Positions 1 through 21,427 of a stretch of DNA of 64,000 nucleotides are shown piece after piece. The stretch lies in NCBI GenBank assembly GCA_902729315.2, contig LR746267.1, positions 5,001-69,000 on the forward strand, written 5' to 3'. Each line of letters starts with the position of its first letter. The first letter of the stretch is position 1. The notes under the pieces are model-generated. The model saw only the letters and a program-made list of their open reading frames with translations, did not search any database and was not told the DNA's origin. Position numbers and translations under genes: made by a program. Origin of the DNA: Spirodela intermedia. Its lineage: Eukaryota > Streptophyta > Magnoliopsida > Alismatales > Araceae.

Positions 1-2177
1 ACCGTGGACGTAGCGCCACCTGAGGTCGCTTTAGCCCAGGTCATGCCGGCCCAGCCCAGCGAGGCTGCGCTGGCTCAGGACGTACAGGCACAGGCCCAGG
101 TGACCCAGGCCAAGCCTGAACAGCCGGCTCAGGCTGCACCGGTCCACTCTCTCTTGCCCAGGCAAGGGGCAAGAGCCTGCGGCCCAAAAAGAAGATAGGA
201 CGCCGACTTTTACGTCCCCCCTCGGCCACGTCCTCTAAGCCTACCTCAAGTCAACAAATCGAACCAACTAGGATCCCAACACTAGTTGAGACCCCTATAT
301 TGACCCCAAACACATCCATTGGGCACACTATTACACCTAGTGGGCTAGACTCTACTGTGCCCCATAGGCCAAACCCGACTATACCCACTAGACACCTATC
401 ATGGGCGCAACGAGTGTCTAACCCCTTTGTCCCCTCCACAGAGACTGTCACACCACAGGAACCGCTACGTCATGTACTATTCCCAATCTATGATACCACT
501 GTCCCAGTGCGAAGCTATAGCGATGATGATGGGAGGAGGACAATAGCTTTTACTTATGAGGAGGTCTCCCAGATGGCAGCCGCATTCCAATATACCTTAG
601 TTGGTCGTTTCACTACGAAACGACCAACCATAGGTGACATAGAGAAGATTTACATGGCACCTGGAAATTTTCAGGGCCGAGTCTCCATCGGAGCTCGAGA
701 CTATCGTAGCATATACATCCGCTTTGAGCTAGAAGCGGATTATCGCCGAGCATGGAGCCGACCCACTTGGAGAATGGGAGAGTCTACCCTCCATACCCAC
801 AGATGGACACCACAAAATGACATAGGGCACCAAGCACATCAGTCTCATGTGGTTCCATTATGGGTGGGCTTCCCTGGCCTACCTGCCCATTTATTTACGC
901 CAAAGGCACTTGAGTCTTTGGCAAATGCGGTGGGAACATTCATATGCCTTGATCCAGGCGTAAAAATGTTCAACCGACCCGGATATGCACGAGTTTGTAT
1001 AGAGGTGGACCTAATGGCCCCCCTCCAGAGGACTCTCGTTATACGTAGTGGAGATGATGAACTTTATCAGCCCATCATTTATGAGAGACTACCGTATTTC
1101 TGCACACATTGTGCGATCTTGGGCCACACTGTCAGCACATGCCGTCAGAAGGCATGTACACCACAGACGACTACACGAGCCTTTCTAGTACCGATCTCAT
1201 ATGACGATTACCTCGTCGAAATGAGAAAGGATGCTCAGAGTGCTCGTCATCCTCAGAGGTCGATTGCCCCTATGGCGGCTCCACCTTCCTTACCTCGGAA
1301 GGCACAGGAGAAGCCTAGCTCACTGATTGAGACACAGCATACACGGCGAAAGCCGGCAGCTGGACGCCCTTCTTCCACCTACACAGGGGGGAAGAAAGGA
1401 ACACGAGAGGCTACACCTTCCCCCTTGAGCAAGGGAAAGCAACCCCTAACCTCAAACACCTTCGAGGTCTTAGGGGCTTTAGATGAGAGAGACGTTGAGG
1501 GACCTGCACAAAGGGGAACTAGGCCTTCCAAAGGGCTAGCATCCTCCACTACGAGGGACTCACCTAGTCCAACCCCCCATACTAGATCCCCCCGGGTTAT
1601 CCGACCCCCCATACTCACCCACCCCACTCCACCCATTAGTGTCTCTCCACCACCCAGCTCCTCCCCGCCCATTCACTCGTCCCCACGTAGTAGGAGTCCT
1701 TCACCTCTTAGTCCCCACCGACCGAGGTCTACCCCTTTCTCTGAGGGTATAGGCTTGGGCTCTATCCATCCCCCTCAAATCCCCGTTGATGATCTATTAG
1801 GAGGGTCTACCCCCAGCATACTTCCTATTAGTACATCTTACGTAGCCCCCCATTCTGATTCTTATACCCTCCCCCCCTCTCCCCTATTACAACCGTCAGA
1901 TCAGTTTCCTATACTTGATCCACCACCCGCTGATTCTAGGGAGAGCCCCGATAGAGGACAGTGCTTAACGAATCGTCAAGCACCACACCCATCCTCCTCA
2001 TCTAGTGCTCATGATACTACGGGCCACACGACTAGTACCCATGAGGATGGTAGCTCTGAGACTGACATTGAGACTACCTACCTAGAGGAGGGATATCAGA
2101 CGGAGGTTAGGACCACACGACTCACTAGACGCTCACCTTACTCCACGAGATCTAGGACTCGTGGGGCCACTCACTAG
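1..2177 (+). CDS. LINE ORF1, gag-like RNA-binding protein (5' partial, probable frameshift near the N-terminus)
   Basis: The frame is open from 120 to the stop at 2177. There is no in-frame ATG before about 573, so translation probably began further left. A second open frame (4-198) encodes an Ala/Gln/Pro-rich stretch of repeated AQ motifs and ends at 196-198. It is probably the real N-terminal part, separated by a frameshift at about 150-195. The body contains a DUF4283-type domain (for example WVGFPGLPAHLF) followed by a CCHC zinc knuckle (CTHC, then H and C in CTHCAILGHTVSTC, about 1099-1141). The C-terminal third is Pro/Ser/Arg-rich and low complexity. Such proteins bind LINE RNA to form the ribonucleoprotein used in retrotransposition. 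The family role is established knowledge; activity of this copy is unknown. Confidence 0.8.
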
Positions 2178-2180
2178 ATC

Positions 2181-5057
2181 ATGATACCTAGCATCATATG
2201 GAATTGTCGAGGTATAGGCAACCTCGAAACCCAATTCTATATCACTAGCCTTATCAGACAGTATCGACTAGGTATAGTAGGCCTCATTGAGCCTATGATA
2301 TCACCAGATCGTATCCAACCCTTACTTAGGAGGTTAGGTATGGATCATTTTCACTCCAACCCCACGAATCATATTTGGATCTTTTGGACTAGACCATACT
2401 CTATGGAGTTGCTAGTCGAGGGACCCCAGCATATCACTATGACGGCTCGAGATCTCACCCAAGAGTTCACCTTCTCGGTCATCTATGCATCACATAGATC
2501 CGAAGAAAGAGAAACTCTTTGGGCGGACCTAGTTCAATACGTGAGGGACTACCCTACACTAGTTGAGTCTCCTTGGTACCTAGCAGGTGACTTCAACTGT
2601 GTCCGTAATACTAGTGAACGTCAAGGTGGGCGAATCCCTAGGGCCCGTAATATGGAGATGTTCAATGATTGTATTTTTCGATTAGCTCTCATTGAGCCAC
2701 CTACATCAGGCGAGGCATGGACGTGGAGCAACAATCGAGGGGACGCTTTGATTTATGAGCGTATCGATCGTTGTTTCATCAACAGCATCGCCATGATGCG
2801 ACATCCCATATTAGTCACGATATTACCCCGTTATAGGTCAGATCACACCCCGATCCTCATACTCCCTAAACAGAGTATGAGCACCCACAGACCCCCCTTC
2901 AGATTTCAAACCATGTGGCTCCAACATGAAAACTTTCAGAGTTTCGTACGGAATCACTGGTACGGACAGATCTCAGATTCTCCTATGGAGAACCTTAGCT
3001 ATAGGTTAAGGAATCTCAAACTCCACCTTAAATGGTGGAACCGACATATCTACGGGAATGTCCATACCCAAGTTGATGCATTGCAAAAAGAGTTAGCAGA
3101 AGTTGAAAGACTACTGCAAGCTAGATATTCAGATGCTGCTTGGGAAAGGAGGAGTAGAGTGAGTGACCAGCTTGATGAGGTTGTGCGACGACAGGAGTTA
3201 TTCTATCTCCAGAAATCACGCATCCAGTGGTTACAAGAGGGTGATAGAAACACTCGTTTCTTTCATGCCTCGGTCGCTCATCGCTCACGTTCAGATTATA
3301 CCTCTCTTTTAGAGACATATGATCATAACCTTTCCCGCATGCAGGAGGCAGGGGTTGAGTACTTTCGTACTCTCTTAACCTCTCAGTCGATTGAGATTTC
3401 TGATGATATGCTCACTTCGATCCCGTCATTGGTCACTCACCGTGAGAACTCTCTCATAACAGCCATACCCACGGGAGAAGAGATCAAGGAAGTAGTTTTT
3501 TCTATGAGTAGACATCGTGCACCCGGGCCAGATGGTTTCCCAGTTGATTTTTACATTTCATGTTGGGATATTGTTGGCACTGATCTCATCCAGGCCATCA
3601 AGGAAATCTTTCGTCGTAAACTCTTTACACGAAGTTGGAAGGCCACCTTCCTTGCACTTATACCGAAGGTGACTACCCCAACCTCATTTAGAGACTTTCG
3701 ACCTATCAGTTTGTGTAACGTGTGTTATAAAGTTGTATCTAAGATCGTTACACGTAGATTGAGTAGTTTCCTTGATAGACTTATATCTCCAGAACAATGT
3801 GGATTTGTCAAGGGACGGTACATTCACGATAACATCATGCTAGTACATGAACTAGCACAGTCCCTTGGCCATGATTGTCGAGGCTCTAACATCATCATCA
3901 AATTAGACATGGAGAAGGCCTTTGATAGGATAGAGTGGAGTTTCCTCATTAAGGTTCTTAGACGCTTTGGGTTCACCGATGACTTCATTGACTTAGTCGA
4001 TGCATGTGTTAGGGAGAATCACTTCTCTTTATTAGTGAACGGTAGCTCCACACCATTCTTCACGGCCACGAGAGGTCTACGACAGGGCGATCCACTATCA
4101 CCCACCCTCTTCATCTTAGTTGAAGAAGTCCTCAGTCGATCCCTCACCCGAGCGATCAATCAAGGACTTATCCGACCATACTACTCGAAGAGGGGTTGCC
4201 CGATCATCTCACACTCCCTCTTTGCTGATGATGCGATACTCTTCCTCAATGGATGTGAGACATCCATTAGAGGGCTCATGAGTATTATCTCGAGGTATGA
4301 GCGAGCTACAGGTCAACTCGTAACTGCCTCGAAGAGTAGCTTCATAGTAGGCCCTTCTACCCCCATAGGGACCATACGACGCATCCAGGGCCTAACAGGG
4401 TTCTCTCGTGGACACTTACCTTTTGACTATCTAGGATGTCCTATCTTCCTCGGCCGTAGGCGCATACACTATTTTGACGCCCTAGTGGGCAAGTTGAGGA
4501 AGAAACTAGCAGGATGGAAGTTACAACTTCTATCCCCTGGAGGACGGATCCAGTTGATACGTCATGTCCTCATGAGCATGCCATTACACCTTTTGGCAGT
4601 CCATGAGGTACCAGACACCGTCTTACAGACTATTAGACGGATATGTACGTCCTTCCTTTGGGATGGACAACTTGAGGGACCTCGTCGTCAACGCCGAGTT
4701 TCTTGGGAGAAAGCATGTCGACCTACGGATGAGGGTGGCCTAGGTATTAGGCGCCCTCAAGATGTACTTAACATGCTTCAAAAGAAACTCGTTTGGAGGA
4801 TGAGGACCACACCATCGGTGCTAGGTACTTTTGTGACAGCCAAATATGGTGAGTGGGCTCGACAGCCGGCCGACATCAAAGGAGTCAAACGATGGGCAGA
4901 CTGGCAGCGACATTGGTTAGAGATGGTGCCTCTTATTCGTTGGCGAGTGGGGAGAGGCGAGATCAGTGCCTGGTACGACACTTGGCTAGATGACATACCA
5001 TTGGCCTGTTTTACCACTTTCACATCTTCTTGGCCTCACTTGACGGTAGCCCAGTGA
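2181..5057 (+). CDS. LINE ORF2, endonuclease and reverse transcriptase (3' part displaced by insertion)
   Basis: The product of 958 residues begins with an APE-type endonuclease: WNCRGIGN near residue 8, GDFNC at 136-140, and SDH at 220-222. A reverse transcriptase follows, with APGPDGFP, the LDMEKAFDRIEW block, GLRQGDPLSP, and the catalytic FADD at residues 681-684. The connector downstream (for example LGCPIFLGRRR, then SFLWDG) is typical of plant L1 elements. The frame ends at a TGA formed by the first bases of the inserted LTR (5055-5057), so the stop is created by the insertion. The zinc-binding and RNase H part lies at 12697-13911. Start chosen at the ATG directly after the ORF1 stop. 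Confidence 0.92.
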   Translation: MIPSIIWNCRGIGNLETQFYITSLIRQYRLGIVGLIEPMISPDRIQPLLRRLGMDHFHSNPTNHIWIFWTRPYSMELLVEGPQHITMTARDLTQEFTFSVIYASHRSEERETLWADLVQYVRDYPTLVESPWYLAGDFNCVRNTSERQGGRIPRARNMEMFNDCIFRLALIEPPTSGEAWTWSNNRGDALIYERIDRCFINSIAMMRHPILVTILPRYRSDHTPILILPKQSMSTHRPPFRFQTMWLQHENFQSFVRNHWYGQISDSPMENLSYRLRNLKLHLKWWNRHIYGNVHTQVDALQKELAEVERLLQARYSDAAWERRSRVSDQLDEVVRRQELFYLQKSRIQWLQEGDRNTRFFHASVAHRSRSDYTSLLETYDHNLSRMQEAGVEYFRTLLTSQSIEISDDMLTSIPSLVTHRENSLITAIPTGEEIKEVVFSMSRHRAPGPDGFPVDFYISCWDIVGTDLIQAIKEIFRRKLFTRSWKATFLALIPKVTTPTSFRDFRPISLCNVCYKVVSKIVTRRLSSFLDRLISPEQCGFVKGRYIHDNIMLVHELAQSLGHDCRGSNIIIKLDMEKAFDRIEWSFLIKVLRRFGFTDDFIDLVDACVRENHFSLLVNGSSTPFFTATRGLRQGDPLSPTLFILVEEVLSRSLTRAINQGLIRPYYSKRGCPIISHSLFADDAILFLNGCETSIRGLMSIISRYERATGQLVTASKSSFIVGPSTPIGTIRRIQGLTGFSRGHLPFDYLGCPIFLGRRRIHYFDALVGKLRKKLAGWKLQLLSPGGRIQLIRHVLMSMPLHLLAVHEVPDTVLQTIRRICTSFLWDGQLEGPRRQRRVSWEKACRPTDEGGLGIRRPQDVLNMLQKKLVWRMRTTPSVLGTFVTAKYGEWARQPADIKGVKRWADWQRHWLEMVPLIRWRVGRGEISAWYDTWLDDIPLACFTTFTSSWPHLTVAQ

Positions 5058-5154: not shown

Positions 5155-5157
5155 TAT

Positions 5158-8158: not shown

Positions 8159-8658
8159 AAATTTGACGTGACTCAGTCGTTGTATGTTAAATCACGCAAA
8201 TTTAAAATTTATAAAACTAGAAAATACGAATTTTCGGATATTTAGAAGTATTTCAAAATAAATATATCAATTATAATTCAATAAAAATCCCAAAAATAGT
8301 GGTAATTTTCCAGGTCGATCACAGGGATGTAATATAATATCTGGTAATTATTCAGAATTTTTCTCAATGAGTACGATTTTCTTACGAATTTTATACTAGG
8401 AAATAAAAAGGAAATATATTTAAAATTCACAAAAAGAAAAGGAAATAAGGGTGCGGACGTCAGGATGACGTCAGCGCCCGGCGAACGCGAATCAGGCGGA
8501 AACAGAGTTCCGCCCGGCGATTCTTACGTAGGCGATTACAGACGACTCAATTAATCAAATTAAGATCTGTAAAAGCCGGAAGAATCGTAATTGAACGAAG
8601 TATAGTTTGGTAAATAAAAATCAACAAAGTATCACTAAATGAAGCGTAAATTAAATTG

Positions 8659-8946
8659 AAAGCAGGAAAACAGAGTTCCGGCGTCGCGACGGCGATGCGT
8701 CGGCGATGCACCGGAATCCTGAGCGTTCGGGAGGATCGTCGTGCAGTGTCCACGGCCTCGAAGGCTCTCCTTGGACAAAGACGACGTGGGCAATCTCTAG
8801 ATAAAGCAGGAAAACAGAGTTCCGGCGTCGCGACGGCGACGCGTCGGCGATGCACCGGAATCCTGAGCGTTCGGGAGGGTCGTCGTGCAGTGTCCACGGC
8901 CTCGAAGGCTCTCCTTGGACAAAGACGACGTGGGCAATCTCTAGAT
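8659..8946. repeat. 144 bp tandem duplication inside the LTR
   Basis: Two copies of a 144 bp GC-rich unit (8659-8802 and 8803-8946), each starting AAAGCAGGAAAACAG and ending at CAATCTCTAGAT, differ at only a few positions. The LTR at 27632 has one copy; the LTR at 34373 has two diverged copies (about 34865-35165). Confidence 0.88.
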
Positions 8947-9418
8947 CTTCTCGCGAAGTCTAGAGACCAATGAAGTGGGTCGTCGAATCGTCTCCGGCGG
9001 CTGTCACCCGGCGGAGCGGAAAAACGGCGACTTTGCGGCTCTCCGGCGGCTGTCACCCGACGGAGAGGGGCTGGATGGAGGTGAGGCGCGTGTTAGGGAG
9101 CTTCATCCTCAGGTCCGCGCAGCAAGAGGAGGCTCTTCATCGCATCTGGTACGCTCTCAGGAGGTGGCGACTGGTCTCCCGGCGGATCGTCCTCTTCCCG
9201 ACGACGGCTTGTTCGTCGATCAATCGGAGATGATTTACTCGATGGATTGCGATCCTTTTATCGCGAATCGTTCAGAAATTTTAGTAGCAATGCTCCGCGA
9301 ATCGCGTTGACGAGATTTTCGCCGATGATCCAGCGATTCCGGTTGCTTAATCCTTCACCGGCGATCTGCAGGAAAGTCGCGATAATCAGTTAAAAATATA
9401 TGAATTTTGACACTGGGA

Positions 9419-9430
9419 GGATTCGAACCC
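9419..9430 (-). promoter_or_regulatory. tRNA-like B box (T-arm) in the LTR
   Basis: The minus strand reads GGGTTCGAATCC, which contains a perfect RNA polymerase III B-box/T-arm core. The flanks (for example GGGCGGGCGACC before it) look like the 3' half of a tRNA. Decayed LTRs keep a similar site (GGGTTTGAATCC near 28690). No A box or full cloverleaf could be built. Confidence 0.45.
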
Positions 9431-9926
9431 GCGGCGGTCGCCCGCCCGTTACAAGGTGGATTTAGTCCCACATCGGTTGTGGGCGGATTATTCGGGCGAA
9501 TATAGAGTAAAGTTAGCTTTCTAGGCAAAGTCCTCTCGCGTGTACGACCACTCCTTGCCCCACAGCCGGCTGACCACCGGTGACGTGGAAGGGGAGTGGC
9601 GCACACGTGCCCCTATCGATCCAAGCAAGCCGCTCGAGCCCCTGCTCGCGGCTACTCCCCGACTGCGCTTCCGACCCGCTTGCGGGCCCGGCTGGCCGGC
9701 GGATCCCCCATTTTGCAATATTTTTATTTTTATTTCTTGTTCTTCATTTATCTCAAAACTAAGACTGTAAAAATCGTATAAAATCACATAATTACCCAAA
9801 AATTCACGTTAATCAACTGAAAACCACTTTTCATGCTTTAACACAAATATAAGTCTATTTATCATGAGTTAAGGCTAAAACTATATTATTTACTGATTAT
9901 TAACTCATGATAATGAAGACTTATCA

Positions 9927-9939
9927 CACCCCCCAACTT
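9927..9939 (-). other. Polypurine tract (plus-strand primer site)
   Basis: CACCCCCCAACTT on the plus strand is AAGTTGGGGGGTG on the sense strand, directly next to the LTR edge. It is the expected priming site for second-strand synthesis. A similar G-run (AAGTTGGGGGGTGAAGT) occurs inside the 3' region at about 6372 and in the right arm at about 11185, and could be an internal PPT. Confidence 0.85.
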
Positions 9940-11125
9940 AAATCATTGCTAGTCCCTTAGCAATGGAATTACGAAAATAAAAATTTACAAATCTCAAACA
10001 TCACATTTCAATACAGAAAAGAAATACAATTAGAAATGATGCACCTTTAAACACTTTGGATTCTTATATCAAGTATTTAAGAATGATGTCAAGCGCTTAA
10101 ATGTTTAAACACTCCTTGGAATAACAATCTAGACTTCACTTCTTCTATTCACATCTTTATCACTTCTTCACTCATAGATGTATTTACAAGATGTTCCAAT
10201 TATCAATACTCATCCAAGAATAATATTGATCTTACATTTCCCTTTTTCTATGACTTGATTTTTGAAGTTTGCACTATATTTCTTCCTTCTTTTTTTTTTT
10301 TATATATATATAGTGGATAAGTAGCTTTTCCTGTAGACAAATTTCGACAATAAGAATGATGTCTCACACCCTCCATGTGTACTCTTCATTTTCAGGGCTT
10401 TCACTTTATCCACTTATTTTTCAGCAAGTGTTTTTCTATGCACGATTTTCGACAATGAGAATGATGTCTCACACCCTCCATGTGTACTCTTCGTTTCTAG
10501 ATTTTTCACATTGCTCTCTCTTTTTTTTTTTTTTGAAATAAGTGATTTCTCCTCACAAGTCCTATAGATCAGGGTGCAAAAATCTCCATTAAACTCAAAT
10601 GATCAATCAAATTTTCACATCAAGTAAATATTATCCATCAAGATCATGAAGTGAAAATCTGTAAAATCAAATCCATGTTATCTATCATGTATCCAAGGAG
10701 TATTCCAACATTTCATGCTACTAGATCATTCTTTTGACTCAATAATAATCTTCCTAGTATCTTTTGGTATCAATCAATCTAATTGATTTAATTTTTCATG
10801 CATGCAATATGATGTAAGGAATTTGTAAATTAGATAGTTCTGACAATTCCGTTTTCTGTTTTCAGTTCTATTTTTAGCAGGAATAAATTTGTCAAAAATA
10901 AATCAAAACTATCTTCTTTATAGCTGTAATTTCGAATTTCAGTAATATATATCTAGGGGATTGAAATGTGAGAAAAGGGTCTTCTAGAATTTCAAATTTC
11001 GGGCTGTTTTTTGTCTGCTGTTTTTGACAGTCTGTTGTTTCTGACAGAAAACCAGAAAATAGATGTTGCAATTTTTCCGAATTTTATTTTATTTTTATTT
11101 TTTTAGTTGCTGTTCTAAGTTGAAT
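9940..11125 (-). other. 3' non-coding region of the Athila-like element
   Basis: This AT-rich region has no long reading frame. It holds a pair of direct repeats of about 45 bp with the core GATGTCTCACACCC (at about 10360 and 10461), about 101 bp apart. The same pair is kept in the decayed relative at about 36651 and 36757, so it is a family feature. Confidence 0.7.
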
Positions 11126-12340
11126 AAAATGCAAACACATATTCTTAATCGTCCTACAGCATAAATTAATAATGAATACTTCACCCCCCGACTTAAAAAT
11201 GACATTGTCCTCAATGACACAAAAAATCGAAACAGAATATGCAGAAAATATAATTTTCAAGTGAAGCATGCATATCTGCAAAGTTAAGCATTAAAAATAT
11301 TTTCATAAATGATGAAGCTCAGAAAGACATCACCTCAACCTCGTTTTTAATTTTCCACTTCATCTTACACTCCTCCTGCACTTTTTCGAAAAAAAACAAA
11401 TACAGAAACAAGTACTGCGAAATTCTAAGAAAAACAGAGCTTAAAAAAAATCAAACAAAATGAAATAAAAACCATGGGTTGCCTCCCATGCAGCGCTGAA
11501 TTTAATGTCTCCAGCTGGACTCCTTGATCTTACTCTTGAATTTCTTTTAATAATAAAATTTCTTTTTCTGCAAGGCGTTCATGTTCTATGTAATGTTTAA
11601 GCCGCTGTCCATTTACCTTAAAGTTATGATCACTTTTAGGATCTTTAATCATTACAGCCCCATGATCATATGTCTCTTCCACCACATAAGGCCCTTTCCA
11701 TTTTGATTTTAATTTTCCTGGGAATAATTTCAGCCTAGAATCATATAACCACACTTTTTGTCCAACATCAAATTTTTTTCTGCTAATGTATTTATCATGA
11801 AAAGTTTTAGTTTTTTCTTTATATATTCTATGATTTTCATAAGCTTCATTCCTCAACTCCTCTAGTTCATGTAACTGAAAAATTCTATGCCCACCAGCTG
11901 ATTTTTCATCCATACATAAATTTTTTATAGCCCATAATGCTTTATGCTCTATTTCCACAGGAAGATGACATGGCTTTCCAAAAATGAGACGAAATGGGGA
12001 CATACCTATGGGATTTTTATAAGCTGTTCTATAAGCCCATAATGCATCTTGTAATTTCGTGGGCCAATCTTTCCTATCTGGTCTAACTATTTTTCTCAAA
12101 ATTCTCTGAATTTCCCTATTTGCTACTTCAGCTTGCCCATTTGTTTGGGGATGATATGGAGTGGCTACTCTATGATGTACTCCATTCTTTTTCAACAGTT
12201 CTCTGAAATTTTTATTTGTAAAATGTGTTCCTCCATCACTAATAATCACTCTAGGACATCCAAATCTCGAAAAAATATTTTCCTGCACAAATTTCATCAC
12301 GATTTTATGATCATTAGTTCTAGTAGGAATAGCTTCATTT
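11126..12340 (-). repeat. Right arm of the 1.2 kb inverted repeat
   Basis: This is the reverse complement of 5225-6440. The outer boundary is at 12340, where a protease fragment of opposite sense begins. The inner boundary is at 11126, where the sequence continues normally into the element's 3' non-coding region. This arm is therefore in its original context and the left arm is the displaced duplicate. Confidence 0.9.
11530..12300 (-). CDS. Ty3/gypsy integrase, C-terminal part (right copy, intact frame)
   Basis: The 256-residue frame has the second and third catalytic residues of the DDE core (Asp in ISDGGTHF, Glu in [10 protein letters not shown]), the [16 protein letters not shown] and [23 protein letters not shown] blocks, and a C-terminal segment with [17 protein letters not shown]. 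The latter is the DNA-binding domain found in plant Ty3/gypsy integrases. The N-terminal zinc finger and the first catalytic Asp are missing because the homology breaks at 12340. It cannot be a complete integrase. The stop at 11530 is the natural end. Confidence 0.88.
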
Positions 12341-12696
12341 CCAGCTGATTTTGTAGTGCTGGAAATGGATTTTAATGGACAGTTTTATGATACACCAATC
12401 ATCCTAGGGAGACCATTTTTGCATACAGCAAAGATGAATATTGATTTTCCCACAGGTATTGCGAAAATTTCATGTGGAGATCAATCAGTAGAAATTAAAA
12501 TTTTTGAGGTATCAAATGATCTTAAGAAATCCCAAGTATATGATTGTCATACCATAGATCTTCTAGATGATTTTGATGATCCAGATGTTATTGATGACTG
12601 TGTGCTGGAAGAATTAGAGGAAATAGAGAATATAAATTTAGAAGAAAAGAAAGAGGAAGATCATCTGAATTTAGAGTTGAAACCGCCCAACCCATC
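12341..12696 (+). pseudogene. Retroviral-type aspartic protease, C-terminal fragment
   Basis: The frame 12356-12712 begins with [12 protein letters not shown]-like sequence and contains IILGRPFLHTAKMNID, the conserved ILGRPFL block of plant Ty3/gypsy proteases. An acidic linker (DDFDDPDVIDD, then EELEEIENINLEEKKEE) leads to LELKPP, where the reverse transcriptase would start. The catalytic DTG part is missing upstream and the RT is missing downstream. The fragment is of opposite sense to the adjoining integrase. The LINE resumes at about 12697. Confidence 0.8.
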
Positions 12697-13911
12697 TGGA
12701 CACTTACCATAGATGGCAGTTTCTCTTGTAGCTCCTCTTGGGAGCACTTTAGAAACCGCTCCCCAAAGACATTTTGGGGAAATCTCATATGGCATCCGGC
12801 TATCACACCTCGTGTTTCGTTCTTCCTGTGGAAGTTCATGCACCGAGGACTACCCACCGACGATCGAGTGATTGTCACCGATCAGGAGGTGGAAAGGAAA
12901 TGTCATTGTTGCTCCATCACGACAGACGAAAGTATGGAACATTTATTTTTCCATAGTGATATCACTGTCGAGTGTTGGCGTCAACTTCTAGCGAATTGGC
13001 TTCCAATGCTCTCGTACAGACCTACGAGACCACCACTAGAGGTCTTTAGGAGAGTCTTTGACTCACCGACGAGTGTCAATGTTTGTCCTTTCATCCGTAT
13101 CTCCATAGCATATATGTTATGGGAAATATGGAAGGGACGTAACTCATCTCGATATGCAGGCCAAGTGATGCGTGCCACAGAGATTATGAGGCACGTAACA
13201 CAATGGCTTCGGAGTACTCATTCCTTAGTGCCAAATAAAACGAAACGCTCGCGTTCTGTTTGTGAGGCTTTTGGGCTTTGGGGACTCCATATCATACCTA
13301 CACAGACCTGGACTACTGTCCGATCTGTTAGATGGACACCACCGAGGGCTGGACAGTGGAAACTCAACGTCGACGGAGCATCTCAAGGCAACCCAGGATC
13401 ATCTGGAGGAGGCGGTATCTTACGCGATAGTACAGGATGCATTCTCTTTGCCTTTTCGAACTTTTATAATATACAAACTAATACTGTGGCAGAGGCTATG
13501 GCAATACGGGATGGTTTGTTTCTTTGTGAGGAGCAAAATATTACTAACATTGTCTTAGAATCTGATTCCAAAGTGTTAGTGGACATGTTACGTGCAGACT
13601 CTTGTCCTCATTGGAGGCTCAAGAATATCTGGGCAGACATCATGCGATGTCGAGGACGCATCACAACTATTACGCATCAATTCCGAGAAGGGAATCAGAC
13701 AGCTGACGCCCTTGCTGCGCATGGAGTCAGATCGCGTCGGAGGACAGTCTTCTCTTTTTGGCAGGACATGCCCCTGGAAGCCCGAGGTGCTCATAGACTT
13801 GAGCGACTCGGCATACCCTCTTTACGCATACACCGCACTCCACTACCGGCCTCTCCACGACAGTGGCGTATTGCTTGGAGGAGATCAAGGGTGGTTACTA
13901 TTGGCCGCTGA
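12697..13911 (+). CDS. LINE ORF2, 3' part: zinc-binding region and RNase H
   Basis: This continues the LINE ORF2 interrupted at 5055. The first part reads FRNRSPKTFWGNLIWHPAI and VSFFLWKFMHRGLPTDD, followed by CHCCSITTDESMEHLFFHS, the zf-RVT motif that follows the RT in plant LINEs. The second part is an RNase H domain: LNVDGASQGNPGSSGGGG with the first catalytic Asp, then NTVAEAMAIRDGL with the Glu, LESDSK with the second Asp, and FREGNQTADALAAHG with the final catalytic block. Comparison with the decayed copy at 29.4-29.7 kb indicates that about 50 codons between TVAQ (5054) and WTLTIDG (12700) were lost. The stop is at 13909-13911. Confidence 0.87.
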   Translation, partial: WTLTIDGSFSCSSSWEHFRNRSPKTFWGNLIWHPAITPRVSFFLWKFMHRGLPTDDRVIVTDQEVERKCHCCSITTDESMEHLFFHSDITVECWRQLLANWLPMLSYRPTRPPLEVFRRVFDSPTSVNVCPFIRISIAYMLWEIWKGRNSSRYAGQVMRATEIMRHVTQWLRSTHSLVPNKTKRSRSVCEAFGLWGLHIIPTQTWTTVRSVRWTPPRAGQWKLNVDGASQGNPGSSGGGGILRDSTGCILFAFSNFYNIQTNTVAEAMAIRDGLFLCEEQNITNIVLESDSKVLVDMLRADSCPHWRLKNIWADIMRCRGRITTITHQFREGNQTADALAAHGVRSRRRTVFSFWQDMPLEARGAHRLERLGIPSLRIHRTPLPASPRQWRIAWRRSRVVTIGR

Positions 13912-15097
13912 AAACCACAATGGAGATACAGCACAACACGGACAACAAGGCACATCGTAATCCACCCGGGTACATTACTTCCAATCATTACTCTCCTCAT
14001 AATCACATCACATCTACTATCTATCATGCTCAAGTAGTGAGGACATAGAACTATCAGCATATGTTGGCATCGGCCCACTTTTGAACTATAGGTCTATAGC
14101 ACATCAGACCTGCCAAACTAGTTGTGAATCGGCAACCTAGCACCTCTCTCAAGATCTTATTAGTACCATCAGCCAGCTTGAACCCATGAGAAGGTAAAGA
14201 TCTATATCCATAGGATTGACCCTCTCTCCTCTCTCTCTCTCTCGATTCTCTATTTCTTTCTCCCTCCCTTTCTCTCTCTAGAAAAAAAAAAAAAAAAAAA
14301 AAAAAGAAAAAAAGAGACAGCCTACTTCTTTTCCCGGAATCACTAGCCCATCATAGACAATTAGTGGAGGGTGAGGGAAAGGGCCCTAAAACCAAAAAAC
14401 AAAAAAAAAAAAAAAAAAGGGCAACCTTTTTCCCTTCCCTTAATCACTAGCCTAATGTACACCAAATAATGGGCATTAGTGGAGGGTAAAAGAAGAGGCT
14501 CTCAAGGAGAGAGAAAGAAGAGAGAGAGAATAAGAGAAAAGAAAAGAGTTAGAACCAGAGACCAAGTCATTCCTCGTGGGGTGAAAGGTCCCTTACCTAC
14601 TTAGAGGAAGTACGGCAACTGATGATACTAACAAGATCTTGGCCAGAGGGATTAGGCGCGTGCAACACTAGCAAGGCAAGTTCATATTTGGGCTTATTGT
14701 CATGCTTCAGCATAGTTCTATCCTCCTCACTGCCCTAATCACTCTTTTCTCACCACTTTATATCAATGTATTTATCTCTTAGAACCACTTACTGCAGCAA
14801 ACTCTTGTCTTGCAGGAACATTGCATGGCGCACAACATGGAGCTCTCGTCCTACTCCTGTTGAGCAGATCTTCCAACTTTCATAAACTCAAAGGCTTTTT
14901 CAACCCACTACAAATCAATCACCTTCCTCAAATATGATGAACGTCATGGAGTCTATCTCTAGTATCATCACATCCCCTCTTCAAAAGAGGTCCTTCATTC
15001 TTCATGTCATCCTCGCCCCTTGTGCGAATGAGATCCCACTTATGTAACCTCGGAATGAGGTCAAACTTTTATCACTCAATCAAATTTCTTCTTCTTA
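13912..15097 (+). other. LINE 3' region, A-tracts and unassigned sequence
   Basis: After the ORF2 stop, 13912-14220 is non-coding. A CT microsatellite lies at 14226-14245 and again before the A-tract at 14281-14304, the likely LINE tail. A second A-tract follows at 14401-14418. The two tracts are each followed by a related sequence of about 90 bp that shares ATCACTAGCC and ATTAGTGGAGGGT (about 14339 and 14440). From 14560 to 15097 I see no gene and recognise nothing. Confidence 0.55.
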
Positions 15098-15168
15098 AAA
15101 ACCCTAAACCCTAAACCCTAAACCCTAAACCCTAAACCCTAAACCCTAAACCCTAAACCCTAAACCCC
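15098..15168. repeat. Interstitial telomeric repeat, left of the tubulin copy
   Basis: About ten perfect CCCTAAA units (C-rich strand on top), the Arabidopsis-type plant telomere sequence. It starts after a short A-run (TTCTTAAAAA) and ends exactly where the presumed tubulin 5' UTR begins. Confidence 0.95.
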
Positions 15169-16901
<1,733 letters not shown>

Positions 16902-16906
<5 letters not shown>

Positions 16907-16978
16907 CTAAACCCTAAACCCTAAACCCTAAACCCTAAACCCTAAACCCTAAACCCTAAACCTTAAACCCTAAACCTG
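16902..16978. repeat. Interstitial telomeric repeat, right of the tubulin copy
   Basis: About eleven CCCTAAA units with one CCTTAAA variant. It begins directly at the tubulin poly(A) tail and ends at the first 5S-like unit. Confidence 0.95.
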
Positions 16979-17562
16979 ACCCCCCTTAGTGGGAGAGTTG
17001 CCACCGGATCCCATAAGAACTCCAGAGTTAAGCGTGCTCGAGTGGGAGTAGTCCCTCGGATGGGTGACCTCCCTGGGTACGTGTGCATGCGTTGCAAGAC
17101 GCTTGCTGTGCATGTGCTGAAAGGCACCGCTGCATGATTGTGTGTTGCCCAGCACGTGTTATGAACCCCTTCGTCACTATGCCAAGATGCCTGGAGCATC
17201 GAAGAATGTGCCGAGAGGCACCCTTGCCCACCATGTCGAAAGGTATATGTGGCATCCATCTCACTATGCCAAGATGCCCCCAGCAAAGAACGTGCCGAGA
17301 GGCACCCCTGCCACTATGCTGAGAGGCATATATGTGGCATCCATCTCACCATGCCAAAATGCCCCCAGCTCCAAAGAATGTGCCAAGAGGCACCCCTGCC
17401 ACGATGTCGAGAGGCACAAGTGGCATCTATCTCCAAAGAATGTGTTTGAGAGGCATCAAAGTGCTTGGGCGTGTGAAGTATCAGGATGGGTGACCTCCTG
17501 AGAAGTTCAGCCCAAGACAGTTATCAAAACAAAAAAAAAAAAAAAACTCAAAAAAAAAAAAA
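16979..17562 (+). mobile_element. 5S-rRNA-headed retroposon, unit 1
   Basis: The head (about 16985-17080) closely resembles plant 5S rRNA: GGATCCCATAAGAACTCC, then AGTTAAGCGTGCTCG (box A) and GGATGGGTGACCTCC (box C). A body of short tandem repeats follows, including hairpins such as GTGCCGAGAGGCAC (17208-17221 and 17292-17305) and ATGCTGAGAGGCAT (17316-17329). A second box-C-like stretch and the tail GAAGTTCAGCCCAAGACAG lead to an A-tract at 17526-17562, interrupted by CTC. Short stop-free frames across the repeats are not supported as genes. Confidence 0.75.
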
Positions 17563-17617
17563 ACCCTAAATATACCCTAAACCCTAAACCCTAAACCCTA
17601 AATATACCCTAAACCCA
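17561..17617. repeat. Telomere-like repeats between units 1 and 2
   Basis: CCCTAAA units interspersed with the variant CCCTAAATATA (twice). They are joined to the poly(A) tail of unit 1 on the left and to the CCCCCCTTAGTGGGAG start of unit 2 on the right. Confidence 0.9.
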
Positions 17618-18140
17618 ACCCCCCTTAGTGGGAGAGTTACCACATGATTGTGCTGCCCAGCACGTGTTATGAACCCCTCTGTCACCATGCCAAGATGCCT
17701 TAAGCATTGAAGAACGTGCCGAGAGGCACCCTTGCCACTATGCTGAAAGGTATATGTGGCATCCATCTCACTATGCCAAGACGCCCCCAGCGAAGAACAT
17801 GCCGAGAGTCACCCCTGCCACCATGCCGAAAGGTATATGTGGCATCCATCTCATTTTGCCAAGACACCCCCAGCGAAGAACGTGCCGAGAGGCACCCTTG
17901 CCACCATGCCGAGAGGCATATATGTGGCATCCATCTCACCATGCCAAGATGCCTGCAGCTCCAAAGAATGTGCCGAGAAGCACCCCTGCCACGATGTTGA
18001 GAGACGCAAGTGGCATCTATCTCCAAGGAATGTGTCTGAGAGGCACCAAAGTGCTTGGACGTGTGAAGTTTTAGGATGGGTGACCTCTTGAGAAGTTCAG
18101 CCCAAGATATTTATCAAAAAAAAAAAAAAAAAAAAAAAAA
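17618..18140 (+). mobile_element. 5S-headed retroposon, unit 2 (head deleted)
   Basis: It begins CCCCCCTTAGTGGGAGAGTT like the others, but most of the 5S-like head is missing and the sequence jumps to the repeat body. Hairpins are seen at 17882-17895 (GTGCCGAGAGGCAC) and 17906-17919 (ATGCCGAGAGGCAT). The tail carries a box-C-like GGATGGGTGACCTC and an A-tract at 18116-18140. Confidence 0.72.
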
Positions 18141-18153
18141 CCTTAAACCCTAA
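18139..18153. repeat. Short telomere-like repeat between units 2 and 3
   Basis: CCTTAAACCCTAAG, about two degenerate telomeric units, joined to the poly(A) tail of unit 2. Confidence 0.75.
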
Positions 18154-18534
18154 GATGCTCCCAACACCATGCCAAGATGCTCTCAGCTCCAAAGAATGTG
18201 CCGAGAGGCCATCCTACCACCATGCCGAGAGGCATATGTGGCATCCATCTCACTATGTCAAGACGCCCCCAACTGTGAAGAACGTGCCGAGAGGCACCCC
18301 TGCCATCATGTTGAAAGGCATATATGTAGCATCCATCTCACCATGCCAAGATGCCCCCAGCTCCAAAGAACGTGCCGAGAGGCACCCCTGCCACGATGTC
18401 GAGAGGCGCAAGTGCCATCTATCTCCAAAAAATGTGCCTGAGAGGCACCAAAGTGCTTGGGTGTGTGAAGTACCAGGATGGGTGACCTCCTAAGAAGTTC
18501 GGCCCAAGACAGTTATTCAAAAAAAAAAAAAAAA
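18154..18534 (+). mobile_element. 5S-family retroposon, unit 3 (5' truncated)
   Basis: The 5S-like head is absent; the copy starts within the repeat body (ATGCTCCCAACACCATGCC). It keeps the repeated hairpins, the box-C-like GGATGGGTGACCTCC, the end GAAGTTCGGCCCAAGACAG and an A-tract at 18519-18534. 5' truncation is usual for products of incomplete reverse transcription. Confidence 0.72.
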
Positions 18535-18552
18535 CTCTAAACCCTAAACCCC
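18535..18552. repeat. Telomere-like repeats between units 3 and 4
   Basis: CTCTAAACCCTAAACCCC, two to three telomeric units directly after a poly(A) tail. Confidence 0.85.
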
Positions 18553-18989
18553 CTATAGTGGGAGAGTTGTCAGTGGATTTCATAAGAACTCTGGAGTTAA
18601 GTGTGCTCGGGTGGGAGCAGTCCTTAGGAAGTCTTTGGGTATGTGTGCATGCGTTGTGAGACACTTGTCGTGCATGTGCTGAAAGTCATATGTTGAGAGG
18701 CACCTTTGCCACCATGTTGAGAGGCATATGTGGCATCTATCTTACCATGTCAAGATCCCCCAGCTCTGAAGAACGTGCCGAGAGGCACCCCTGCCACCAT
18801 GCCAAGATGCCTTGAGCATCAAAGAACATGTCGAGAGTCACCCTTGCCACCATGCCGAGCGGCATATGTGGCATCTATCTCTGAAGAATGTGCCTAAGAG
18901 GCACCAAAGTGGTTGGGCGTGTGAAGTATTGGGATGGGTGACCTCTTGAGAAGTTCGGCTCAAGACAATTTTTTTAAAAAAAAAAAAAA
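18549..18989 (+). mobile_element. 5S-headed retroposon, unit 4
   Basis: It has the head with AAGAACTCTGGAGTTAAG and box A, but part of the box-C region is lost. The body contains the repeated hairpins. The tail has GGGATGGGTGACCTC and GAAGTTCGGCTCAAGAC, and ends in an A-tract at 18976-18989, followed by CCCTAAACCTTAAA. Confidence 0.72.
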
Positions 18990-19003
18990 CCCTAAACCTT
19001 AAA

Positions 19004-19793
19004 AACTCCTTTTAGTGGGAGAGTTGCCATTGGATCTCATAAGAACTCTAGAGTTAAGTGTGCTCGGGTGGGAGCCAACCCAGGATGGGTGACCTCCTTG
19101 GGAAGTCACTGGGTACGTGTGCATCGAAGAACATGCTGCCCAGCATGTGTTGGGATGAGTGACCTCCTTGGGAAGTCCCCAGGTACATGTGCATCGAAGA
19201 ACGTGTTGCCCAGCATGTATTACGAACCCCTTCATCACCATGCCAAGAGACACTCTTGCCACCATGCTGAGAGGCACCAAAGGGCTTGGGCATGTGAAGT
19301 ACCGAGATAGATGACCTCTTAAGAAGTTTTTTTTTTTTTTTTTTTTTTTCTTTTTTGTTTTTTTTTTTTTTTTTTTGGGATAACTATCTTAGGCCAAACT
19401 TCTCGGGAGGTCACCCATCCCGGTACTTCTTGGCACATATGCCTCTCGGCATGGTGGCAAGGGTGCCTCTTGGCACGTTCTCTAGAGCCGGGGGCGTCTT
19501 TAGTGAGAGATGGATGCCATATATGCCTCTCGGCATAGTGGCAGGTGCCTCTTGGCACGTTCTTCGAAGCTCAGAGCATCTTGGCATGGTGACAGAGGGG
19601 TTCGTAACACGTGCTGAGCAGCACGATCATGCAGCGGTACCCGGGGACTTCCTAGGGAGGTCCACCCATCTGGGGACTACTCCCACCCGAGCACGCTTAA
19701 CTCCGGAGTTCTTATGGGATCCGGTGGTAACTCTCCCACTAAGGGGGGTTTCCTCTTGAGAAGTTTGACTCAAGACAATTATCAAAAAAAAAA
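19004..19793 (+). mobile_element. 5S-headed retroposon, unit 5, split by an inverted unit
   Basis: The head and box A/C sequences are clear (AGAGTTAAGTGTGCTCGG, then GGATGGGTGACCTCC). There is a duplication of the 5S 3' half (about 19085-19195). The tail is interrupted at 19330 by unit 6 and resumes at 19752-19793, ending in ten A and CCCTAAA repeats. Confidence 0.75.
19330..19751 (-). mobile_element. 5S-headed retroposon, unit 6, with target-site duplication
   Basis: This copy is on the minus strand: a T-rich tract at 19327-19376 is its poly(A) tail, and its 5' end (CCCCCCTTAGTGGGAG in sense) is at about 19748. It is flanked by CCTCTTAAGAAGTTT (19315-19329) and CCTCTTGAGAAGTTT (19752-19766), a 15 bp target-site duplication with one mismatch inside the tail of unit 5. 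No telomeric repeat flanks this copy. That shows where the element begins and ends, and that the telomeric repeats at the other copies belong to the target. The 5S-like head is the most complete of all. Confidence 0.82.
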
Positions 19794-19813
19794 CCCTAAA
19801 CCCTAAACCTTAA
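19793..19813. repeat. Telomere-like repeats between units 5 and 7
   Basis: CCCTAAACCCTAAACCTTAA directly after the poly(A) tail of unit 5 and before the CCCCCCTTAG start of unit 7. Confidence 0.85.
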
Positions 19814-20119
19814 CCCCCCTTAGTAGGAGAGTTGCCACTGGATCTTAAAAGAACTTTAGAGTTCAGTGTGCTCAAGTGGGAGTAGTCTCTGATTGGGTGA
19901 CCTTTTTGGAAAGTCCCTAGGTACCACTGCATGATCGTGCTGTGCCTAGCACGTGTTACGAACCCCTCTATCAGTATGCCAAGATGCCCTAAGCTTCAAA
20001 GAACGTGCCAAGGGACACCCCTACCACCATGCCGAGAGTCATATGTGCCAAGAAGTACCAAGATGGGTGACCTCTTGAAAAGTTCAGCTCAAGATAGTTA
20101 TCCCAAAAAAAAAAAAAAA
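19814..20119 (+). mobile_element. 5S-headed retroposon, unit 7
   Basis: A short unit of about 300 bp with a decayed 5S-like head (AGAGTTCAGTGTGCTCAAG, ATTGGGTGACC), one repeat block, a box-C-like AGATGGGTGACCTC and an A-tract at 20105-20119. It is similar in layout to unit 6 and is probably close to the basic element without repeat expansion. Confidence 0.75.
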
Positions 20120-20276
20120 CCCTGAACCCTAAACCCAACCCCTTTTAGTAGGAGAGTTGCCACTAGATCTCATAAGAACTCTAGAGTTAAGCATGCTCGG
20201 ATGAGAGCAATCCCGTCGTCACCATGCGTTGCGAGATGCTTGCTATGCATGTTCGGCCCAATATAATTATCCCTAA
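20119..20276 (+). mobile_element. Telomere-like repeats and 5S-headed retroposon, unit 8
   Basis: CCCTGAACCCTAAACCC (20119-20137) is followed by the head of another unit (GGAGAGTTGCCACTAGATC, AGAGTTAAGCATGCTCGG). It breaks into a short tail ending GTTCGGCCCAATATAATTAT at about 20270, followed by CCCTAAACCTAAG without a poly(A) tract. It is the last unit of the block. Confidence 0.68.
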
Positions 20277-20636
20277 ACCTAAGACCTTGCTCAATTTTTT
20301 TCTCTCTCCTCGCGGGAGCTTCTCTCTCTTCACTTTCAACTAACCTCCATCTGAAATGGCGATATCTCTTTCGTGTGACTTCCAATCGCGCTGAAATCAG
20401 TTCCATTGGATTCGGAAGCCAAAATCTATCAACTTCGAGCTTTTAAGCGTCGAAAATAGTGGATTGAAGCCTTCGTTGTCGGAATTTCTTCATTGAGAGG
20501 TATTTTTCTGGACTTTTCGTTCTAAAGGTAATATCTCTCTCATTACTTGGACCAAGTTTAATATTTTTAAATCATTTGAATCGTATTTCTGTGCTCTATA
20601 TTTTTCTCTTCTTCATCATCTTCATCTGATGCTTAC
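20277..20636. other. Non-coding sequence upstream of an unrecognised reading frame
   Basis: A pyrimidine-rich stretch (TTTTTTTCTCTCTCCTCGC at about 20295) and AT-rich sequence. It could be the leader of the reading frame at 20637, with a possible 5' splice site (AAAGGTAATATC) near 20527. I see no gene in it. Confidence 0.35.
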
Positions 20637-21427
20637 TTGATGAGTAAATCAGAGATTTCATCGACGGACTCATGTCCGTCGGATGAAAAAAATGAGGGAA
20701 GATGCGACCTAATAGGAAACCGCCACATGGGGCGACTCGTCCGCGGCGATAAAACGCCATCCGAGGAACCCATTGATGGCCCGGACATTGGGGCAGCCAA
20801 AGGGCGGAATGGCCGCCTTGAGAACAGCAGTGATTCGCCGTTGGCCGACGTCCCCTCGGTTTCCGCAAACGAGGGAATGGCTCTTGAGCCATTCCCTCGA
20901 TCTGTGGGAAAGGGAGAGGGCACGTGGCGCCGTCTCCCTGACCTCACCGTTGATCGTGAGATTAACGGTGAGGATCGACGAGAGGAAAGGCGGGCGATGT
21001 GGGGGCGGTGTCAGCTGACGTGGACTCATCAGCTTCGGTCCTTGATCTGACCGTTAATCTTGCGATCAACGGACAGGAGGGAGCCGAGATAAAGGCGCCG
21101 CATTCTGCTGATGCCGTTACCTCGGTCCTCGTACCCATGGTGTCTACCCCAGCGGAGGCTGACGCGAACTCGTCAGCTTCCGGAGAAAATGCGTTAGGTG
21201 GCGGCTTTTCCTCGGAATCGACCCTTCATCATCTGACCGTTGATCTTGAGATCAACGGACAGGAGGAAACCGAGATAAAGGCGCCGCATTCTGGCGACGC
21301 CGTCACCTCGGTCCTGACAGCCAACGCATCCCCGCTAGCGGGGGCTGACGGGGGCGGTGCCACTAGGGTGGCGGCGGCACCCGCTCAGGCTGAGGCAGCA
21401 ACACCCAAGGCCATGAAACCCATATGA
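20637..21427 (+). CDS. Unrecognised GC-rich reading frame with repeated LTVxxxING motif, one probable frameshift
   Basis: I do not recognise this protein. Two overlapping open frames (20637-21050 and 20999-21427) are best joined by one frameshift near 20980-21000, because a motif repeats across both: DLTVDREINGE, DLTVNLAINGQE and HLTVDLEINGQE, spaced about 100 and 190 bp apart. IKAPHSADAVTSVL and IKAPHSGDAVTSVL are also duplicated. The composition is acidic, Ser/Ala-rich and apparently disordered. It ends where decayed Ty1/copia sequence begins, so it may be the gag-side leader of that element, or a captured host gene piece. Confidence that it is translated is low. Confidence 0.35.

What the first reader, a model, noticed from the sequence alone, without database searches (positions are those of the whole stretch)
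16875..20137. Recurrent poly(A)-to-telomere junctions with one polarity: a candidate telomere-primed retroposition process
Seven A-tracts (tubulin, and units 1, 2, 3, 4, 5 and 7) run straight into CCCTAAA-type repeats, always with the C-rich strand on the right. In that polarity the first cDNA strand (poly T) is joined to the 3' end of the G-rich strand, which is the strand that ends at a chromosome tip. New telomeric repeats then lie at the 5' end of each inserted unit. The block can be read as alternating rounds of telomerase extension and RNA capture, comparable in outcome to Drosophila HeT-A/TART, the TRAS/SART elements of silkworm, or telomere-attached Penelope-like elements, but with a 5S-derived and an mRNA-derived template in a plant. 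I know of no such described plant system.
Basis: partly seen in the sequence, partly recalled or inferred. Interest (0 to 1): 0.92.

Follow-up and report, generated by a model that had tools for sequence, protein, structure and literature searches.

The report
RNA copies stacked on plant telomeres
At the chromosome ends of a small flowering plant, probably a duckweed, copies of a LINE retrotransposon, of a 5S-RNA-derived SINE and of ordinary gene mRNAs are joined tail-inward to telomere repeats again and again, which suggests that reverse transcription and telomerase take turns in building the ends.

Summary
The junctions are real and are a genome-wide feature of chromosome ends. The exact string A10-CCCTAAACCC occurs 68 times in this 136.5-Mb genome. 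Sixty copies lie within 60 kb of a chromosome end, 59 of them with the poly(A) towards the centromere. The opposite polarity occurs 0 times.

Three kinds of RNA are the templates: an L1-type LINE with endonuclease, reverse transcriptase and RNase H domains; the 5S-derived SINE; and at least six host mRNAs. All four mRNA copies tested lack the introns of their parent genes. The window's tubulin copy starts 33 bp after the parent's TATA box, directly behind telomere repeats, and ends in an A30 that the parent lacks. A telomerase gene is present.

Priming on very short telomeric ends fits better than insertion into long arrays (inner tract at most 50 bp in 69 of 84 junctions) but is not proven. 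An expected age gradient was not found. A 2025 review knows no comparable system in plants; green-alga, lycophyte, insect, fungal and mammalian parallels exist.

The parts
34..5054 (+). LINE-A, first part: ORF1 (120-2177) and start of ORF2 with endonuclease and RT (2178-5057); 98% identical to the LINE on contig C30
   Evidence: domains read on the C30 copy
12687..15097 (+). LINE-A, second part: end of ORF2 with RNase H, 3' UTR; separated from the first part by an LTR-element-like insertion (5055-12686)
15097..15101 (+). short A-tail (A5) of the LINE
15102..15167 (+). telomere-type tract between LINE 3' end and tubulin 5' end (66 bp)
15169..16874 (+). full-length, intronless alpha-tubulin mRNA copy with 5' and 3' UTR; parent gene at G000:C3:5384957-5387760 with three introns
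16875..16904 (+). poly(A) tail A30, absent from the parent gene
16905..16976 (+). telomere-type tract (72 bp)
16977..17530 (+). 5S-derived SINE, unit 1
   Evidence: 5S_rRNA 23.6 bits, below the gathering score of 38
17531..17622 (+). A-tail (A16-CTC-A14, after CAAAA) and telomere-type tract (59 bp)
17623..18115 (+). SINE unit 2 (internally deleted)
18116..18153 (+). A25 and degenerate telomere-type tract (13 bp)
18154..18518 (+). SINE unit 3, 5'-truncated at about position 188 of unit 1
18519..18551 (+). A16 and telomere-type tract (17 bp)
18552..18975 (+). SINE unit 4
18976..19003 (+). A14 and telomere-type tract (14 bp)
19004..19326 (+). SINE unit 5, first part (its rest is 19752-19783)
19327..19751 (-). 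SINE unit 6 with its poly(T) side at the left; inserted into unit 5 with a 15-bp target-site duplication (19315-19329 / 19752-19766, 1 mismatch); no telomere repeat at its 5' end
   Evidence: (5S_rRNA 30.3 bits, gathering score 38)
19784..19817 (+). A10 and telomere-type tract (24 bp)
19818..20104 (+). SINE unit 7
20105..20143 (+). A15 and telomere-type tract (24 bp)
20137..20281 (+). remnant of a further SINE, ending TTATCCCTAAACCTAAG without a poly(A)
20287..20663 (+). 5' end of a further, older LINE copy (76% to the C30 LINE)

Best explanation
The block is a stack of independent retroposition products made at a chromosome end. An L1-type LINE of this genome supplies the reverse transcriptase. 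Its own RNA, the 5S-derived SINE RNA and occasional host mRNAs pair through their poly(A) with the TTT of the telomeric G-rich strand (..GGGTTT-3'), and the first cDNA strand is made from there. The cDNA's 3' end (the 5' end of the RNA, or a truncation point) becomes the new end of the G-rich strand; telomerase adds TTTAGGG repeats to it; the cycle can repeat. The result is head-to-tail units with 5' ends towards the tip, poly(A) towards the centromere and telomere repeats between. The short inner tracts suggest that capture happens when the telomere is nearly gone. Subtelomeric recombination then copies and reshuffles the stacks. SHOWN: RNA origin (spliced mRNAs, poly(A) tails); uniform polarity and terminal location; many separate events; the LINE's coding capacity; a telomerase-type gene; real telomere arrays directly outside such units on some contigs. 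INFERRED: that the LINE's enzyme does it; that priming is at the free end rather than at an internal nick; that telomerase adds the outer repeats; the link to telomere shortening.
For: Genome-wide polarity and place: 68 against 0; 60 of 68 within 60 kb of an end, 59 of them poly(A)-inward; 2 more inward at 60-400 kb, 3 on the small contig C30, 3 interior. 59 of 99 SINE 3' ends have telomere behind them, 54 of the 59 inward, none interior. 14 distinct LINE 3' ends of 43 match LINE-A-telomere under the gap limit, all 14 inward, subtelomeric or on C30; two more have longer tails. Templates: alpha-tubulin, VDAC/porin, U2B'', eL34, a glycine-rich RRM protein and an unnamed possibly plastid protein; parents with introns for 4 of 4 tested. 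Tubulin copy begins 33 bp after the parent's TATA box with no CCCTAA in the 221 bp of parent DNA read there, and ends in an A30 not in the parent. LINE domains. Telomerase RNA-binding domain at C1:8638861, over cut-off. 36 contig ends: 12 telomere array, 15 LINE (longest match 5'-to-tip in 15 of 15), 1 LINE by translated match, 4 SINE, 1 eL34 mRNA (labels it LINE through its A-tract), 3 unclassified. C3R, C18R, C11L and C12L run from a telomere array straight into such units. Inner tract median 23 bp, 69 of 84 at most 50 bp, in the stretches fetched without regard to the pattern 17 of 19, against terminal arrays of about 300-2200 bp. 71 of 84 junctions are A(n)-CCCT, i.e. placed at the TTT of the G strand. 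One LINE fragment lacks a poly(A) and joins by ..ACCCC|TAAACCC (C9R), as an internally primed product would.
Against: No junction was seen in raw reads; the assembly was taken as it is. If growth is only at the tip, age should rise inward: tract length, A length and tract purity showed no significant trend over 17 arms and 68 junctions (P 0.22, 0.44, 0.30), and LINE identity is not monotonic (C11R distal 69%, proximal 88%). Inner tracts may have shrunk later. 65 of the 84 junctions come from stretches chosen because the pattern hit there, or from right tips, so their phase and polarity shares are biased; the genome-wide counts are not. 5 of 59 SINE-telomere junctions point outward. The LINE also sits at 15 interior places of 43; 4 of 4 of those read have ordinary flanks, so it is not telomere-specific.
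Confidence: 0.68

Rival explanations
1. Endonuclease-dependent insertion into existing telomere repeats, as in TRAS/SART: the LINE endonuclease nicks the G-rich strand at TTT|AGGG inside the array, and LINE, SINE and mRNA insert by ordinary target-primed reverse transcription; the outer repeats are simply the old array.
For: Gives the same polarity and the same A(n)-CCC phase (71 of 84). The LINE carries an endonuclease domain (Pfam Exo_endo_phos) with the motifs WNCRG, IYAS, GDFN and SDH unbroken in the copy read (their meaning is recalled). The same SINE makes target-site duplications elsewhere (unit 6).
Against: Inner tracts are too short for random insertion: 69 of 84 at most 50 bp; under a uniform 0-300 bp model P is about 2e-39, though junctions are not fully independent and tracts may shrink. 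A LINE fragment without poly(A) is joined to telomere. A review passage says that only full-length TRAS/SART elements are found at telomeres; here 5'-truncated copies are common. The LINE is also inserted at non-telomeric places.
Confidence: 0.22
2. Few original captures, then spread by subtelomeric recombination, break-induced replication or tandem amplification; most units are DNA copies, not new retroposition events.
For: C9 left arm: SINE-telomere units of similar size with short A-tails in tandem. The same LINE-A22-telomere junction sits on C4R, C5L and C14R, with different DNA further in on C4R and C5L. The U2B'' retrocopy recurs at C1:11105395, C1:11382101 and C18:4491738. The last stretches of C1 and C6 have LINE 3' ends at identical spacing and identical last 400 bp.
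Against: All 84 junction signatures differ. Six different mRNAs, six clear SINE truncation points (47, 102, 188, 220, 264, 312 on unit 1 or unit 6) and four LINE truncation points with longer or near-identical matches (2586, 4006, 6681, 7991) make at least 16 separate events (my count). So it is an addition to, not a replacement of, repeated capture.
Confidence: 0.07
3. The telomere pieces are copied from RNA: the reverse transcriptase jumps at the 5' end of one RNA onto C-rich telomeric RNA or the telomerase RNA and then onto the next poly(A), so a stack could arise in few events.
For: Many tracts are only 2-5 repeats long.
Against: Tracts of 110-221 bp also occur beside long A-tails. Real terminal arrays lie directly outside units. 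No telomere piece is seen at the 5' end of the non-telomeric SINE unit 6.
Confidence: 0.02
4. Assembly artefact: telomere-containing reads were misjoined to cDNA-like sequence.
For: No raw reads were seen; C1 and C6 share identical ends, and many contig ends begin with N.
Against: The same architecture recurs on many arms with diverged copies, graded decay of repeats and different templates; the probable source paper reports long nanopore reads and telomeric sequence at all pseudomolecule ends (passages).
Confidence: 0.01

Closest known systems
Zepp, LINE-like element of Chlorella vulgaris telomeric regions (named in passages of PMC10088271; the original paper is not held)
   Same: A LINE accumulated at chromosome ends of a green-lineage organism that keeps telomere repeats
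   Different: Described for one LINE in a green alga; SINE and host mRNA capture is not mentioned in the passages seen
TRAS/SART of Bombyx (passages of PMC4700185)
   Same: Telomerase-type repeats interrupted by elements with endonuclease and RT; one polarity expected from cutting between T and A
   Different: Sequence-specific and full-length only at telomeres; here truncated copies, SINEs and mRNAs, and LINE copies elsewhere
HeT-A/TART/TAHRE of Drosophila (listing abstracts and passages)
   Same: Head-to-tail units at chromosome ends; 5' end to the tip and poly(A) inward is recalled for Drosophila
   Different: There no telomerase repeats; here telomere repeats between units and a telomerase gene
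Endonuclease-independent human L1 at dysfunctional telomeres of DNA-PKcs-deficient hamster cells (Morrish 2007, seen only through passages of PMC4700185; 'human L1' and 'hamster' recalled)
   Same: L1-type reverse transcriptase uses a chromosome end as primer; poly(A) joined to telomere repeats
   Different: A laboratory mutant situation; here in a natural genome, repeated, with SINE and host mRNAs
Telomere-attached Penelope-like elements: Athena, Terminons, and those of the lycophyte Selaginella (passages of PMC12477314)
   Same: Attachment to G-rich telomeric 3' ends; a plant case exists
   Different: Different RT class; the LINE here has Pfam RVT_1, endonuclease and RNase H
MoTeR/FoTeR of fungi (MoTeR: search listing; FoTeR: abstract and section 19 of PMC12857005)
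   Same: Non-LTR elements embedded in telomere repeats, 3' side followed by short C-rich tracts (3-8 copies in FoTeR)
   Different: Telomere-restricted dedicated elements; no SINE or mRNA capture in the parts seen

Membership tests
L1-type plant LINE (for the LINE here) | Apurinic-type endonuclease and reverse transcriptase in ORF2 | tested here: met
   PF03372 2.5e-9, PF00078 7.7e-35 on the C30 copy; 91 relatives with E <= 0.001, the named ones mostly plants
L1-type plant LINE (for the LINE here) | RNase H domain and an ORF1 with zinc knuckle | tested here: met
   RVT_3 2.5e-22, RNase_H 1.2e-6; DUF4283 1.2e-21; zf-CCHC_4 3.5e-5 but below its cut-off
L1-type plant LINE (for the LINE here) | Intact, active copy | tested here: inconclusive
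   In the C30 copy ORF2 is broken by a frame change and stops; in the window copy it is interrupted by an insertion; other copies not read through
TRAS/SART-type telomere-specific LINE | Insertion confined to telomere repeats | tested here: not met
   15 of 43 LINE 3' ends are interior, none of them in the LINE-telomere list; 4 of 4 read have non-telomeric flanks
TRAS/SART-type telomere-specific LINE | Only full-length copies at telomeres | tested here: not met
   Copies truncated at 2586, 4006, 6681 and 7991 joined to telomere
TRAS/SART-type telomere-specific LINE | Endonuclease cuts the telomere repeat | not testable with these tools
   Needs a cleavage assay
HeT-A/TART telomere system | Head-to-tail units, poly(A) towards the centromere | tested here: met
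HeT-A/TART telomere system | Replaces telomerase | tested here: not met
   Telomerase_RBD gene present; terminal telomere arrays at 12 of 36 contig ends
Penelope-like telomere elements | Penelope-type RT without endonuclease | tested here: not met
   LINE-type RT with an endonuclease domain
SINE | Head derived from a small pol III RNA, A-tail, target-site duplication | tested here: met
   5S_rRNA matches 30.3 and 23.6 bits, both below the gathering score of 38; A-tails; 15-bp duplication of unit 6, one copy tested
SINE | Pol III transcription | not tested
   No expression data
Processed mRNA retrocopy | Introns of the parent absent | tested here: met
   4 of 4 tested: tubulin, VDAC, U2B'', unnamed protein; eL34 and the RRM protein not tested
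Processed mRNA retrocopy | Poly(A) not encoded by the parent | tested here: met
   Tubulin only
Processed mRNA retrocopy | Target-site duplication | tested here: inconclusive
   Flanks are telomere repeats on both sides, so a duplication cannot be recognised

The most novel reading that the evidence does not exclude
In this flowering plant, LINE-driven RNA capture is a standing second way of lengthening chromosome ends beside telomerase. Whatever polyadenylated RNA is at hand (LINE, SINE or host mRNA) is reverse-transcribed from eroded telomeric 3' ends and then re-capped by telomerase, so that ends are rebuilt in alternating rounds and new intact retrogenes (tubulin, VDAC) are born at telomeres.
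Probability: 0.4. Interest if true: 0.95.

Novelty: new variant of a known kind. Interest (0 to 1): 0.88.

Why it matters
A 2025 review states that telomeric retrotransposons of the Drosophila kind have not been found in plants (passages of PMC12477314). Here telomerase repeats and retroposition alternate at many ends of a plant genome, and the captured RNAs include ordinary, nearly unchanged mRNAs. That makes an old question testable: whether a LINE-type reverse transcriptase can act on natural, unmutated chromosome ends. It gives telomeres a role in producing retrogenes, leaves a fossil record of past telomere states (length of the inner tract, order of capture), and may suit fast-growing clonal plants for experiments.

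Tried and rejected
Rejected: one tandemly duplicated unit (six mRNA templates, different truncation points). Rejected: end-joining of cDNA in either direction (68 against 0). Rejected: telomere repeats belonging to the RNAs or to the parent promoter (parent tubulin has none in the 221 bp read; unit 6 and 4 of 4 interior LINE ends read have none).

Tried without success: an age gradient along the arms. No significant trend in tract length, A length or purity; the first version handled ties wrongly and is replaced. LINE identity was dropped as an age measure because the 3' UTR varies between subfamilies. A first telomere-tract finder lost tracts behind long arrays and was replaced. Two BLAST-derived 'truncation points' (115 and 137) proved to be internal deletions or divergence, 162 follows a second A-run, and LINE points 1387, 1885 and 3482 were weak; none of these is counted. 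labels C12R as LINE through an A-tract; it is eL34.

Papers: searches listed nothing I recognised as this system in a flowering plant; only titles and abstract starts were seen, except for the papers cited by passage. One search (5S-derived SINE phrases) found 0.

Full report
What was checked. The window is contig C4, 5001-69000, of a 136,496,439-bp genome in 32 contigs. Contigs C1-C18 carry most of it. Size, 18 large contigs and a 13.4-Mb contig 9 agree with the published assembly of the duckweed Spirodela intermedia clone 8410 (136.6 Mb, 18 pseudomolecules, largest 13.4 Mb named Si09; passages of PMC7645714). That identification is an inference from size and number, not a sequence match.

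Genome-wide counts. A10-CCCTAAACCC: 68, of which 59 lie within 60 kb of an end with the poly(A) inward, 1 within 60 kb outward, 2 inward at 60-400 kb, 3 on the small contig C30 and 3 interior; the backwards-read control gave 0. Poly(A) running into the G-rich strand (A10, 0-8 bases, GGGTTTAGGG): 0. Ends within 60 kb make up 1.6% of the genome. LINE 3' end 17-mer: 43 copies, 21 within 60 kb, 5 at 60-400 kb, 2 on C30, 15 interior; 14 of the 43 match with A-tail and telomere under the gap limit, none of them interior. SINE 3' end 14-mer: 99 copies; 59 have telomere within 30 bases, 54 of these inward, 5 outward, 0 interior.

What the units are. The LINE has ORF1 with DUF4283 and a weak zinc knuckle, and ORF2 with endonuclease, RT, zf-RVT and RNase H domains. 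The endonuclease motifs WNCRG, IYAS, GDFN and SDH are unbroken in the C30 copy (their significance is recalled), but ORF2 of that copy is broken further on. The SINE's head matches the 5S rRNA model at 30.3 and 23.6 bits, below the gathering score of 38. Six host mRNAs end in A-tracts joined to telomere: alpha-tubulin (this window), VDAC/porin (C18R), an unnamed, possibly plastid protein with a broken frame (C18R, outermost behind a 2-kb telomere array), eL34 (C12R), a glycine-rich RRM protein (C2L) and U2B'' (C1R). For tubulin, VDAC, U2B'' and the unnamed protein the genome holds a parent split into exons, at C3:5384957-5387760, C1:675421-683563, C1:8544038-8546659 and C7:5632775-5636004.

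The tubulin unit as the clearest case. Three introns are gone, and the exons are 99-100% identical. The copy starts 33 bp after the first T of the parent's TATAAATA, and the 221 bp of parent DNA read there hold no CCCTAA. It ends where the parent reads on without an A-tract, and an A30 follows. Telomere repeats lie at both sides: 66 bp outside, 72 bp inside. So an mRNA was copied to or near its cap, its poly(A) sits on telomere repeats, and telomere repeats were placed on the cDNA end.

Chromosome ends. Of 36 contig ends, 12 show telomere arrays in the first 200-400 bp after any N, 15 LINE (longest match with the 5' side to the tip in 15 of 15), 1 LINE by translated match, 4 SINE, 1 eL34 mRNA and 3 unclassified (with C12R corrected). 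C3R, C18R, C11L and C12L show telomere array, then unit, directly. No G-rich run of two or more heptamers was found in the 21 left-end stretches of 10 kb. Many left ends begin with N, so their outermost bases were not seen.

End priming or internal nick. Polarity and the A(n)-CCC phase (71 of 84) fit both. The inner telomere tract is short: median 23 bp, 69 of 84 at most 50 bp; 17 of 19 in stretches fetched without regard to the pattern, and 28 of 38 where the A-tail is 18 or longer. Terminal arrays measured 306-2217 bp where they were read past 400 bp or to their end. Random insertion into such arrays would leave longer inner tracts; later shrinkage is possible but would have to be fast. One LINE fragment on C9R is joined to telomere without poly(A) through ACCCC|TAAACCC. 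Against simple outward growth: no significant inward trend in three measures, and recombination between ends clearly occurs. I therefore hold end priming as the better reading, not as shown.

Relation to what is known. A review of 2025 says that telomere-associated elements are rare in plants, naming Penelope-like elements in Selaginella and subtelomeric Retand, and that telomeric retrotransposons like those of Drosophila have not been found in plants (passages). Another paper names Zepp1 of Chlorella among elements inserted in telomere repeats (passages). TRAS/SART are full-length only and sequence-specific (passages); the LINE here fails both tests. Endonuclease-independent L1 events at dysfunctional telomeres (passages) are the closest in mechanism. 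The mixture of LINE, SINE and host mRNAs at natural telomeres, in a flowering plant with telomerase, is what I have not seen described in searches.

Noticed in passing
window 5055-12686: An LTR-element-like insertion splits the LINE's ORF2; near-identical integrase-like ORFs lie at both its ends in opposite orientation (5220-5855 + and 11530-12384 -).
   Followed up: no
window 7346-7452: A match to the plant snoRNA family snoR71 (51.9 bits, gathering score 40) lies inside that insertion, overlapping a long minus-strand gag-like ORF.
   Followed up: no
G000 C1 11384387-11466831 and C6 10087721-10170165: LINE 3' ends at identical spacing and identical last 400 bp: the ends of C1 and C6 share a long stretch. 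The probable source paper puts 45S rDNA near the ends of exactly these two chromosomes.
   Followed up: partly
L004 (C1, about 11.104-11.106 Mb): The stack with the U2B'' retrocopy borders a GC-rich repeated stretch that looks like rDNA spacer, some 360 kb from the contig end.
   Followed up: no
L031 (C9R), reverse-complement positions 4060-4763: A chimeric unit: a piece resembling organellar 16S rRNA (recognised from memory, no search) followed by a LINE ORF1 piece without poly(A), between telomere tracts.
   Followed up: partly
L017 (C9L), 1418-5293: About 50 tandem copies of a 78-bp unit resembling the LINE ORF1 repeat region in reverse orientation, between the telomere array and the SINE stack.
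   Followed up: no
G000 C11:952752: A17 followed by two telomere repeats at what looks like an exon-intron border of an interior gene, the only interior case that is neither LINE nor SINE.
   Followed up: partly
L019, L045 (LINE-B): A second LINE type (about 69-73% to LINE-A, 3' end AATATAATC..) is also joined by its A-tail to telomere repeats.
   Followed up: partly
window 15301-16635; L035 (C18R): The tubulin copy (from 15283) and the VDAC copy keep long open frames and could be young retrogenes.
   Followed up: partly
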